Shown here: in pieces, positions 5,559-9,300 of the stretch
Layout of the letters: each line of letters opens with the position of its first letter
Position numbering within the stretch: the stretch's first letter is position 1
Source: Candidatus Bathyarchaeota archaeon
GTDB lineage: Archaea > Thermoproteota > Bathyarchaeia > 40CM-2-53-6 > FEN-987
DNA length: 11,003 bases
NCBI GenBank assembly: GCA_022865625.1
Contig: JALHTB010000004.1
Coordinates: 1-11,003 of the forward strand
Reading direction: 5' to 3'
Made by a program: the position numbers and the translations under genes
The notes under the pieces: model-generated
What the model saw: the letters and a program-made list of their open reading frames with translations, nothing else
Told to the model about the DNA's origin: nothing
Databases searched by the model: none

Positions 5559-5951
5559 ATGGATTCCTACGCTTGGGTAGAACTCTTTCTCGGCGGTCAA
5601 AAAGGACAGAACGTCAAGCGAATCATAACAGAGGCCGACGAAGTAAGGACGCCCGATATAGTCTTGGCAGAGATCTCCAGGAAGTACCTGAGAGAGAAAG
5701 CCGACAGCAGCAGACTCAAGTCCAGACTAGAGACGATCGCATCAGCCTCGCTCGTGACACCCGTTGGGGTCGAGATAGCCATGAAGGCAGGAGAAGCATA
5801 CCTTGAACTCGCAGAAAGAGCCGCAAGGCAAAGACGCAGAGCCCCGAGCCTATTCGACGCGATCGTTCTTGCCACAGCGCGTGTGTATGATTCAAAGGTC
5901 CTGACTGGAGACGAGCATTTCGAAGGACTACCAGAAACCATTGCAGTCTAG
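5559..5951 (+). CDS. vapC: VapC-type PIN-domain ribonuclease toxin
   Basis: PIN-domain RNase of 130 residues. The four acidic metal ligands expected of an active PIN domain are visible: D2 (MDSYAW), E38 (LAEI), D100 (LFDAIVLATAR) and D118 (LTGDEHF). Characterised VapC toxins cut tRNA or rRNA; the target here is unknown. ATG at 5559 puts the first catalytic aspartate at residue 2. Homologues often begin MKLV before the aspartate, and an in-frame CTG at 5547, overlapping the vapB stop, would restore L-K-L-V, so a non-standard start is possible. The gene ends 35 bases from the encoded CCA end of a convergent tRNA gene. Confidence 0.85.
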   Translation: MDSYAWVELFLGGQKGQNVKRIITEADEVRTPDIVLAEISRKYLREKADSSRLKSRLETIASASLVTPVGVEIAMKAGEAYLELAERAARQRRRAPSLFDAIVLATARVYDSKVLTGDEHFEGLPETIAV

Positions 5952-6003
5952 GCTGCAAACCGATCCGCAGGTTCAATTCGAAGCGGTGGTGGGGCCGGTG
6001 GGA

Positions 6004-6025
6004 TTGTCATGGCTTTTGTAGCCAT
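6004..6025 (-). other. noncanonical tRNA intron in the T-loop, position 59/60
   Basis: Twenty-two bases inside the T-loop. An internal hairpin (TGGCT, loop ACAAA, AGCCA) sits beyond a central helix of TTCA against TGAC with three Watson-Crick pairs and one T-C mismatch. Bulges AAA and AAT, cut after the second base, restore the seven-base loop TTCAAAT. This is a relaxed bulge-helix-bulge. The exact borders could shift by one or two bases because of the run of A. Confidence 0.82.
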
Positions 6026-6047
6026 TTTGAACCCACGGCCTCCCGGG

Positions 6048-6063
6048 CTCTCGCATGCATGGT
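6048..6063 (-). other. canonical tRNA intron at position 37/38
   Basis: Sixteen bases, starting ACCATG and ending CGAGAG, between G37 and C38. Bases 32-35 (CTCG) pair with CGAG inside the intron to make the four-base-pair central helix. The flanking three-base bulges GGA and AGC are each cut after the second base. This is an exact bulge-helix-bulge substrate for archaeal tRNA splicing endonuclease. Confidence 0.88.
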
Positions 6064-6144
6064 CCCGAGCCGGGTATCATACCATGCTAGACAACGGCCC
6101 CAAGCGTCGTAACAGAGCCGGGGGTCCCTAATTCTACCTTTCTC

Positions 6145-6507
6145 TCATTTCTTGGTCTTGAATATCAGCCAGTTCTTGTCCTTGGTTCGTATCAGTCTGT
6201 AATCTCCATCGAGTCTGTTCCCATGAAACACTAAGGCAATCGCAGTCTCTGTATTGTTCGTGAGGTCGAAGGTTCCCCTATCCCAGATTTCGACCTTGCC
6301 CGCACCGTACTCTCCTTCAGGTATGGTGCCTTGGAAGTCGATGTAATCAAGCGGATGATCGTCGACAGCTACCGCCAGACGTTTCACGCCGGACGTCTCA
6401 GGTGGACCCTTCGGGACCGCCCAACTCCTGAGCGTGCCGTCAAGTTCCAGACGCAAGTCGTAGTGAAGCGTTCGAGCCGCGTGCTTGTGTACGACGAATC
6501 TTGGCAT
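6145..6507 (-). CDS. stand-alone LigD-type 3'-phosphoesterase (PE domain)
   Basis: Single-domain DNA 3'-end healing enzyme of 120 residues, matching the PE domain of bacterial LigD but free of ligase and polymerase domains. PE removes 3'-terminal ribonucleotides or 3'-phosphates so that ends can be ligated. Catalytic and metal residues known from Pseudomonas LigD line up at a constant offset of 33: H9, H15, D17, R19, H51 and Y55. The blocks HYDLRLE (15-21), SWAVPKGP (28-35) and PEGEYGAG (63-70) are intact, so it should be active. ATG at 6507 is the only credible start; the frame is open upstream but lacks another start codon. It is last of four co-directional genes, 47 bases after the metalloprotease. 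Confidence 0.92.
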   Translation of the reverse strand: MPRFVVHKHAARTLHYDLRLELDGTLRSWAVPKGPPETSGVKRLAVAVDDHPLDYIDFQGTIPEGEYGAGKVEIWDRGTFDLTNNTETAIALVFHGNRLDGDYRLIRTKDKNWLIFKTKK

Positions 6508-8344: not shown

Positions 8345-9265
8345 TCACTTTAGGCTTCCAAGGATGAGCGATATCAAAGCCATTCGTGTCAGAAGGCCAT
8401 ACCACGCCTGCTTGAAGTACTTCGAGTGTACGGTTCCGTCGACATCTGGGCTGATCTCGTCGATCCTCGGAAGAGGATGCATCACAATCGCATCCTTCTT
8501 CGCGGACCCTAACTCAAGAGTGCTAAGCTTGTATGAGCCCCTCACCTTCTCGTACTCAGCAAGGTCAGGAAAACGCTCCTTCTGAATTCGCGTCATATAG
8601 ATGACGTCCAGATCTGGCAGGGCCTGCACAAGGTCAGTGCTTTCCTGCACGGGGATCTTCTTCTCAACTTCCACAAGCACGTCTCTTCGCATCCGAAGCG
8701 AATCAGGAGAGATCAGATGCAGCTTGACTTTGTACTGGGCGAGGGCATACGCAAGGGAGTGGACAGTTCTCCCATAACGTAGATCTCCAATGAGCCCAAT
8801 GCTAAGGCCGTCGATTGTTCCCTTCTCTTGCTTCACCGTGTACAGATCCAGCAAGGCCTGAGTCGGATGCTCCTCCGCACCGCTACCAGCATTGATGACT
8901 GGAACAGATGAGAACTCAGCCGCAAGCCTCGCTGCGCCCTCCAGAGGGTGCCGTATCACCAATGCGTCTGCGTAGCTCTCGAGGACTCTCACGGTGTCTG
9001 CGAGGTTCTCTCCCTTCTCAACCGAGGCGGCTCTTGGATCCGCGAACCCGATGCAGGTTCCACCGAGCCTATACATGGCTGACTCAAAGCTAAGCCTCGT
9101 GCGTGTGCTCGGTTCAAAGAAGGCTGTGGCCAGGATCTTGCCATGTAGCATATCTGATCCTTTACGGGCTAGGGATTCCATCGAGTCTGTCTTGTTCAGA
9201 ACGTAATCGATCTCGTCGCGTGTGAAGTCCCTGATCGATACGATGTCCCTACCCGTGAAGTCCAT
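8345..9265 (-). CDS. pyrB: aspartate carbamoyltransferase catalytic chain
   Basis: Catalyses carbamoyl phosphate + L-aspartate to N-carbamoyl-L-aspartate, the committed step of pyrimidine synthesis, as trimers in a PyrB/PyrI complex. The carbamoyl-phosphate loop STRTR is at 53-57, the mobile S81/K84 loop follows (SVEKGENLADT), HPTQ is at 133-136, and an HPLPR block near the C-terminus binds aspartate. At 306 residues it matches the family. ATG at 9265 is chosen, with MDFTGRDI the normal beginning and GGTGG just before it; a TTG at 9286 would add seven odd residues. A TATA-like element at 9301-9310 (minus strand) fits. pyrI is divergent rather than downstream in an operon. Confidence 0.95.
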   Translation of the reverse strand: MDFTGRDIVSIRDFTRDEIDYVLNKTDSMESLARKGSDMLHGKILATAFFEPSTRTRLSFESAMYRLGGTCIGFADPRAASVEKGENLADTVRVLESYADALVIRHPLEGAARLAAEFSSVPVINAGSGAEEHPTQALLDLYTVKQEKGTIDGLSIGLIGDLRYGRTVHSLAYALAQYKVKLHLISPDSLRMRRDVLVEVEKKIPVQESTDLVQALPDLDVIYMTRIQKERFPDLAEYEKVRGSYKLSTLELGSAKKDAIVMHPLPRIDEISPDVDGTVHSKYFKQAWYGLLTRMALISLILGSLK

Positions 9266-9300
9266 CGGAGCCACCAGCTGAAACAAGTCACGAGGTTCGG

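What the first reader, a model, noticed from the sequence alone, without database searches (positions are those of the whole stretch)
5987..6101. tRNA-Pro(CGG) gene interrupted twice, once inside the T-loop
The gene folds into a normal tRNA only after removing a 16-base intron at 37/38 and a 22-base one at 59/60. The second has relaxed bulge-helix-bulge form (three pairs plus a mismatch), implying a broad-specificity splicing endonuclease. Such T-arm introns are known mainly from crenarchaea and have been proposed to protect tRNA genes from integrases that target the T-arm. Ordinary tRNA searches would probably miss this gene or mis-bound it.
Basis: partly seen in the sequence, partly recalled or inferred. 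Interest (0 to 1): 0.7.

Follow-up and report, generated by a model that had tools for sequence, protein, structure and literature searches.

The report
Archaeal tRNA gene with two introns
An archaeon related to the Bathyarchaeia carries a proline tRNA gene cut by two small introns, one inside the T-loop; relatives share this and some of their tRNA genes appear to carry four introns, one more than the three stated in the papers consulted.

Summary
Window 6101-5987 (-) encodes tRNA-Pro(CGG) with a 16-nt intron at 37/38 and a 22-nt intron at 59/60; ARAGORN and Rfam miss the raw gene, and ARAGORN calls it once the T-loop insert is removed. By PyrB the window is nearest to Bathyarchaeota genomes. 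Eleven related genomes carry tRNA-Pro(CGG) with the same two interruptions, and stems of spliced orthologues show compensated changes. A covariance model of T-arm plus 59/60 intron matches 50 of 256 genomes of that class, 53 of 250 of a Nitrososphaeria class, 20 of 47 of a Lokiarchaeon's and 15 of 149 of a Methanolobus class, so 'mainly crenarchaea' is too narrow. T-loop base 57 covaries with the intron. Twelve of 16 clade genomes searched show two EndA genes; alpha subunits carry the Lys44 'CSL' loop of broad-specificity enzymes. Beyond the finding: nine relatives each have one tRNA gene read with four introns; papers consulted state three as maximum. Integrase protection stays undecided. There are no RNA data, and the window's own genome is not held.

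The parts
5987..6101 (-). tRNA-Pro(CGG) gene, 115 nt with encoded CCA, interrupted twice
6064..6101 (-). exon 1, tRNA positions 1-37 (anticodon CGG at 6067-6065)
6048..6063 (-). intron 1, 16 nt, position 37/38; central helix CTCG/cgag, weak apical hairpin (bulge-helix-loop)
6026..6047 (-). exon 2, tRNA positions 38-59, ends in T-loop TTCAAA
6004..6025 (-). intron 2, 22 nt, position 59/60 in the T-loop; relaxed BHB (A57-t, C56-g, T55-a paired, T54.c not), 5-bp hairpin
5987..6003 (-). exon 3: T60, 3' strands of T-stem and acceptor stem, A73, CCA; no second copy of these 17 bases in the window at up to 3 mismatches
6145..6507 (-). neighbouring ORF upstream: LigD 3'-phosphoesterase domain (PF13298), ends 43 nt before the tRNA; context only
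5559..5951 (+). neighbouring convergent ORF: PIN domain (PF01850); context only
8345..9286 (-). pyrB-like ORF (aspartate/ornithine carbamoyltransferase domains), used to place the window

Best explanation
It is a functional tRNA-Pro(CGG) gene whose precursor carries two protein-spliced (bulge-helix-bulge type) introns. In the pre-tRNA, T-loop bases 54-57 pair with the 3' end of the second intron and anticodon-loop bases 32-35 with the 3' end of the first, each making a splicing endonuclease substrate; EndA cuts after the second base of each 3-nt bulge, the tRNA ligase joins the exons, and only then can the T-loop fold and be modified. Shown by sequence: the pairing, covariation at base 57, conservation in relatives, the EndA type of relatives. 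Inferred: expression, cutting, ligation and their order. The gene belongs to a Bathyarchaeia lineage in which 59/60 introns sit in many tRNAs and look inherited with the tRNA gene. Because TTC(A/G)A is almost the same in every tRNA, the T-loop offers a ready-made half of a splice site, which may be why this position is so often occupied (inference).
For: Gene structure and tool behaviour. Twelve distinct tRNA-Pro(CGG) genes, the window's and 11 in related genomes, carry a 37/38 insert of 13-21 nt and a 59/60 insert of 15-24 nt. Ten spliced orthologues (of 19 in hand): 9 of 20 stem pairs have changes on both sides, 0 of 500 shuffles as good. Base 57 against its intron partner in 137 T-arm introns: A-T 100, G-C 22, others 15; 122 Watson-Crick against a shuffled mean of 87 and maximum of 102 in 5000. 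Orthologues exist with no intron (G044) and with D-arm introns instead (G010, G012, G024, G025), so the inserts are removable parts. EndA alpha with CSL and Lys44 in relatives. Shuffled window gene solved 0 of 300.
Against: No transcript, splicing or charging data. The window's genome is not held, so its EndA, its ligase and a second Pro(CGG) gene could not be checked. By eye no T-run terminator or clear promoter box (no archaeal promoter test was run). Intron 1 has almost no apical hairpin. Two of the 12 Pro(CGG) genes (L096, L102) do not pass the splice-site solver at 37/38 even under relaxed rules. 15 of 137 pairs at base 57 are not Watson-Crick. The introns came from loci found with a model that contains these pairs, and the rows were chosen and spliced so as to fold, so full pairing there is partly built in; the compensated changes are the informative part.
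Confidence: 0.92

Rival explanations
1. The locus is a decaying tRNA pseudogene into which two unrelated short insertions have fallen.
For: No expression data; the genome cannot be checked for another copy.
Against: Every stem of the window's spliced tRNA pairs, with compensated differences from orthologues; both inserts fit the splice-site geometry; the same two interruptions are found in 11 related genomes.
Confidence: 0.04
2. The T-loop insert is kept in the mature tRNA as an enlarged T-loop.
For: In the minimum-energy fold of the unspliced gene four pairs of the T-stem and the insert hairpin form.
Against: It would abolish the conserved T-loop; orthologues have intact T-loops; the 3' end of such inserts covaries with loop base 57 as a splice site requires.
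Confidence: 0.02
3. In addition to being spliced, the T-loop intron is kept by selection because it breaks the attachment site of integrases that target tRNA 3' ends (not exclusive with the best explanation).
For: The idea is in print for disrupted tRNA genes in general (passages of PMC4390854, and PMC4033280). In G033 a recombinase-like ORF (24.7 bits, below the family cut-off) lies beside a tRNA gene that ARAGORN calls Ser(TGA) from the raw sequence: one weak case.
Against: In G034 an integrase ORF lies about 1.8 kb from a tRNA-Glu with a T-loop intron; no duplicated tRNA end was found in the 40 kb examined. Some tRNA genes of G033 are read without any T-loop insert. No comparison of integration rates was possible.
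Confidence: 0.15

Closest known systems
Non-canonical archaeal tRNA introns at 59/60
   Same: Same position and splice-site type; 59/60 is listed among known non-canonical positions (PMC4090602, passage).
   Different: Passages seen place such introns mostly in Crenarchaeota, Thaumarchaeota and Nanoarchaeota (PMC8450103, PMC3218864, PMC4090602). Here the host is a Bathyarchaeote relative. Mean distance of T-loop introns is smaller between the same isotype in different genomes (0.392, 277 pairs) than between isotypes of one genome (0.487, 37 pairs), which suggests inheritance rather than the spread between tRNAs described for Thermoproteales (PMC4090602, PMC4033280, passages); near-identical genomes add to that difference.
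tRNA genes of Caldiarchaeum subterraneum
   Same: Introns at 37/38 and in D-, V- and T-arms; three genes with several introns (PMC3293823, passage).
   Different: Different lineage; number per gene beyond 'multiple' was not stated in the passage.
Intron-rich tRNA genes of Asgard Atabeyarchaeia and Freyarchaeia
   Same: 92-95% of tRNA genes with introns, often non-canonical, over half with several (PMC11291895, passages).
   Different: Different phylum; positions and the maximum per gene are in a supplement that I could not open, so four-intron genes there cannot be excluded.
EndA of Aeropyrum pernix (3p1z)
   Same: G033 EndA alpha aligns over 177 residues, with Lys44 of the CSL and, by my reading, the Tyr, His and Lys of the catalytic triad (CSL and K44: PMC6379350, passages).
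   Different: The T-loop-intron clade has one more residue in this loop in 14 of 14 alpha subunits read, against 0 of 7 in other Bathyarchaeia, and lower-scoring beta subunits (44-55 against 71-85 bits).

Membership tests
Archaeal BHB tRNA intron (59/60) | removal restores a standard tRNA | tested here: met
   ARAGORN; compensated stem changes
Archaeal BHB tRNA intron (59/60) | two 3-nt bulges separated by a 4-bp central helix | tested here: inconclusive
   Bulges fit; three of four central pairs form (relaxed form). Of 137 introns counted 114 have four pairs, 22 three, 1 two.
Archaeal BHB tRNA intron (37/38) | two 3-nt bulges, 4-bp central helix, apical helix | tested here: inconclusive
   Four central pairs and both bulges, apical helix of one pair: bulge-helix-loop form.
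Archaeal BHB tRNA intron | cut by EndA and ligated in the cell | not testable with these tools
   needs RNA or enzyme
(alpha-beta)2 broad-specificity EndA | two separate EndA genes | tested here: inconclusive
   Relatives only: 12 of 16 clade genomes show two genes, 4 show one. Window's genome not held.
(alpha-beta)2 broad-specificity EndA | CSL loop with Lys44 in alpha | tested here: met
   Relatives only: aligned for G033; loop read in 14 of 14 clade alpha subunits fetched, ten by eye and four.
(alpha-beta)2 broad-specificity EndA | cuts relaxed splice sites | not testable with these tools
   needs enzyme
Mobile-element insertion scar | neighbouring integrase or repeated attachment site | tested here: not met
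   No integrase domain in the 10 ORFs scanned (of 31 listed); no second copy of the tRNA 3' end in the window at up to 3 mismatches. Only 11 kb of context.

The most novel reading that the evidence does not exclude
The window's gene belongs to an archaeal lineage with the most interrupted single tRNA genes reported so far: nine related genomes each have a tRNA gene with four introns (Pro-GGG in the D-loop near 20/21 and at 30/31, 37/38, 59/60 in six genomes; Pro-CGG at 15/16, 25/26, 37/38, 59/60 in G004, the possible sister of the window; Tyr-GTA at 9/10, 30/31, 37/38, 59/60 in two). The T-loop, nearly constant in all tRNAs, acts as a general landing site for such introns across Archaea, including methanogens with a strict endonuclease.
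Probability: 0.65. Interest if true: 0.68.

Novelty: new member of a known kind. Interest (0 to 1): 0.5.

Why it matters
tRNA genes hidden by T-loop introns are missed by common searches, so tRNA sets of uncultured archaea can look incomplete. The relatives give a natural series for one and the same tRNA (no intron; D-arm introns; 37/38 plus 59/60; four introns), which makes gain, loss and splicing order testable. The contrast between lineages whose EndA has the CSL loop (relaxed splice sites present) and methanogens without it (only full 59/60 helices seen, 7 of 7, a small sample) is a direct test of how the enzyme shapes where introns can live.

Tried and rejected
Rfam at E<=1 and ARAGORN on the raw window found nothing. 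Blastn of the whole gene against 18 genomes hit two, which led to the other T-loop introns. A simple cloverleaf solver left 49 of 103 entries without fit; the 103 include a few chance scanner hits. The multi-intron solver then solved 45 of 103 under strict rules and 25 of the 54 further entries tried under relaxed rules. Rejected as solver artefacts: the five-intron reading of L166 (25.5) and four-intron readings of L122, L131, L132, L136, L174 (25.1-26.1; shuffles of other genes reached 26.5), and Ser(TGA) in L155. L155 is still among the 63 rows of the distance count. Not counted: a four-intron candidate in a Nitrososphaeria-class genome, L239 (27.1). Of 126 model matches in the class of G001 110 were fetched; the 16 weakest were not. 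Of the 110 loci, ARAGORN gave a tRNA ending at the expected place in 78 once the T-loop insert was removed (its anticodon calls are often wrong there); 14 of the other 32 were solved with two or more introns; the rest stay open, four (L134, L157, L179, L188) with no scanner hit. L103, counted, is probably no intron. In the Nitrososphaeria-class set L250 passed the criteria but looks spurious, and five of 30 failed. The solver resolved none of the 10 Methanolobus-class loci, although ARAGORN gave a tRNA in all 10 after removal of the T-loop insert; by eye they look like tRNA-Ser(CGA) with a further D-loop insert. PyrB places the window only weakly beside G004 (90/59). The integrase question stayed open. 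For the Tyr gene the full-length contiguous relatives found are tRNA-Phe, so its junctions are checked against a related tRNA; the Tyr call rests on anticodon GTA and on C1-G72 (identity element recalled, from no call). Class names are mine, from the labels of the centre genomes and from recall; the tool names no group.

Literature: searches were the only searches. Their listings showed no paper on tRNA introns of Bathyarchaeia and none with four introns in one tRNA gene; the library lacks most subscription journals, and of the papers cited I saw passages only. Sugahara 2008, Fujishima 2010 and Randau and Soll 2008 were seen only as cited in those passages.

Full report
What is there. On the minus strand, 6101-5987, the window holds a tRNA gene that reads as standard only when two stretches are left out: 16 nt (6063-6048) at 37/38 and 22 nt (6025-6004) at 59/60. 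ARAGORN finds nothing in the raw window, and Rfam nothing up to E=1. With the T-loop stretch removed ARAGORN reports tRNA-Pro(CGG) and itself marks the 16-nt intron; with only the anticodon stretch removed it finds nothing. The first site has four central pairs but an apical helix of one pair. Shuffling the gene interior never gave a solvable tRNA (0 of 300).

Where it lives. The 18 best PyrB relatives in the genome collection are 64-71% identical; 13 are labelled Bathyarchaeota, the rest 'archaeon', 'uncultured archaeon' or, once, 'bacterium'; the next ones are at 59% and less. In a PyrB tree of 49 rows its neighbour is G004 (archaeon RBG_16_50_20), with weak support (90/59). No genome is held for the window. 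Neighbours are a LigD phosphoesterase-domain ORF that ends 43 nt upstream and a convergent PIN-domain ORF; nothing ties them to the tRNA. The 17 bases at the tRNA's 3' end have no second copy in the window.

Relatives. A blastn search turned up other tRNA genes with inserts at the same T-loop position. A scanner asking for a T-stem, an acceptor stem and a splice-site-like insert found more in the loci in hand. A covariance model of the T-arm with its 59/60 intron, built from eight sequences including the window, matches 50 of 256 genomes of the class of G001 at E<=0.01, 126 matches, up to six in a genome. By handle number, which probably follows kinship to G001 (not stated by the tool), the matches are clustered: 9 of 18 genomes in G001-G018, 30 of 30 in G019-G048, 11 of 208 in G049-G256. 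The model also matches 53 of 250 genomes of the class of G257 (labelled Nitrososphaeria), 20 of 47 of the class of G259 (labelled Lokiarchaeota) and 15 of 149 of the class of G260 (Methanolobus). E-values are rough, and about two or three chance matches are expected per 250 genomes. Of the loci fetched there, ARAGORN or splice-site criteria supported 25 of 30 (one of them, L250, looks spurious), 28 of 29 and 10 of 10.

The same gene in relatives. Twelve distinct tRNA-Pro(CGG) genes, the window's and 11 others (G009, G018, G033, G034, G035, G036, G039, G040, G041, G042, G043), carry both a 37/38 and a 59/60 insert; ten of the 12 also pass the splice-site solver, those of G039 and G041 do not. 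G037 adds a 15/16 intron. G004 has four introns in it. G010, G012, G024 and G025 have, by eye, introns in the D-arm region instead and an intact T-loop, and G044 has no intron at all. Ten of these 19 were aligned in spliced form: all 200 stem cells pair and nine of 20 pairs are changed on both sides, reached by 0 of 500 shuffles. Full pairing is partly built in, because rows were spliced so as to fold; the compensated changes are not. So this is a maintained gene. In five of the 11 relatives the full-length blast match to the spliced sequence is tRNA-Arg(CCG), not a second Pro(CGG) (G033, G034, G039, G040, G041); no intact Pro(CGG) was seen in the listed matches of the other six, but the list was cut, not every match was fetched, and the genomes lie in many contigs.

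The splice site is real. In 137 T-arm introns (91, 21, 18 and 7 from the four classes), picked from the fetched loci without asking for the central helix, base 57 and its intron partner are A-T in 100, G-C in 22 and something else in 15. Watson-Crick pairs number 122 against a shuffled mean of 87 and a maximum of 102 in 5000 shuffles; the partner of C56 is G in 137 of 137 and that of T55 is A in 124 and G in 13. Related sequences, and the model that found the loci, favour pairing, so this is strong support rather than a probability. A T54.C mismatch is found in 4 of 137, the window itself included, and one of the four (L103) is probably no intron. Helices of three pairs occur in 15 of 91, 5 of 21, 2 of 18 and 0 of 7 (Methanolobus class).

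The enzyme. Of 16 T-loop-clade genomes searched 12 show two EndA genes and four show one; of seven Bathyarchaeia without a model match five show two and two show one. G033 alpha aligns with A. pernix alpha over 177 residues, and Lys44 of its Crenarchaea-specific loop is conserved (role of Lys44: PMC6379350, passages). The clade's loop is one residue longer in 14 of 14 alpha subunits read, against 0 of 7 in the other Bathyarchaeia (read by eye, and, whose motif search missed several); clade beta subunits also score lower (44-55 against 71-85 bits). Shared ancestry explains such a link as well as function does. Of the 15 Methanolobus-class genomes with model matches, 14 show one fused two-domain EndA and one shows none; in those 14 the loop is absent. 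So a full 59/60 site can apparently live with a narrow enzyme; the relaxed site of the window fits the broad one.

Four introns. A solver that removes splice-site-like introns and asks for a full cloverleaf solved 45 of 103 entries under strict rules (one of them from a Lokiarchaeon): one intron 2, two 27, three 11, four 5. It solved 0 of 900 shuffled versions, and 0 of 200 for each of the five four-intron genes. Relaxed rules solved 25 of 54 more; shuffles of the genes shown were then solved in up to 5 of 100 cases, with lower scores (26.5 at most among those printed; real 28.4 or more). Under either rule 14 readings have four introns; five of these score 25.1-26.1 and are rejected. That leaves nine genomes with one four-intron gene each: Pro(GGG) in G009, G039, G040, G041, G042, G045; Pro(CGG) in G004; Tyr(GTA) in G018 and G033. 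ARAGORN names each of the nine spliced products as that tRNA and finds nothing in the raw loci. The mature Pro(GGG) of G009 aligns end to end with an uninterrupted Pro(GGG) of G047 (80%), and the Tyr body aligns almost end to end with uninterrupted tRNA-Phe genes (83-88%). Passages of the papers consulted put the maximum at three (PMC8450103; PMC4390854; PMC4033280). Asgard genomes with very many tRNA introns are in print (PMC11291895, passages); their count per gene was not visible to me.

How it probably works, and its history. The 3' end of a 59/60 intron need only read about tgaa or cgaa to pair with the near-universal TTCA or TTCG of the T-loop, so any tRNA already supplies half of the site (inference). 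Within Bathyarchaeia the introns look inherited: mean distance 0.392 between the same tRNA of different genomes (277 pairs), 0.487 between different tRNAs of one genome (37 pairs), 0.512 otherwise (1639 pairs); some of the genomes are near-identical, which lowers the first figure. Protection from integrases is an idea in print; my look at 21 genomes, 9 of them with integrase matches over the cut-off, decided nothing.

Verdict. The gene itself is a new member of a known kind. What raises the interest is the lineage: T-loop introns in at least seven amino-acid families (Glu, Phe, His, Met, Pro, Gln, Tyr), and genes read with four introns.

Noticed in passing
L225-L234 (class of Methanolobus genome G260): tRNA genes with full-helix 59/60 introns of 30-32 nt, by eye tRNA-Ser(CGA) with a further D-loop insert, in genomes with a one-gene EndA lacking the CSL loop.
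   Followed up: partly
L265-L293 and L031:8914-9053 (class of Lokiarchaeon genome G259): 59/60 introns of about 28-31 nt in several tRNAs; model matches in 20 of 47 genomes.
   Followed up: partly
L294-L297 (G010, G024, G012, G025): tRNA-Pro(CGG) with D-arm introns (about 15/16 and, in three, near 24/25, by eye) and intact anticodon loop and T-loop.
   Followed up: partly
L203, L205, L207, L209-L214, L217, L361, L370, L373, L377 (EndA alpha): One extra residue in the CSL loop in all 14 T-loop-intron clade genomes read; clade beta subunits score lower against PF01974.
   Followed up: partly
L444:1352-2647 and 2706-2844 (G033): A weakly recombinase-like ORF lies directly beside a tRNA gene that ARAGORN calls Ser(TGA), as in tRNA-targeting elements.
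   Followed up: no
L239 (class of G257): Possible four-intron tRNA (9/10, D-arm, 30/31, 59/60), score 27.1, not counted.
   Followed up: no
window 6145-6507: A 120-aa ORF with only the LigD 3'-phosphoesterase domain, just upstream of the tRNA.
   Followed up: no
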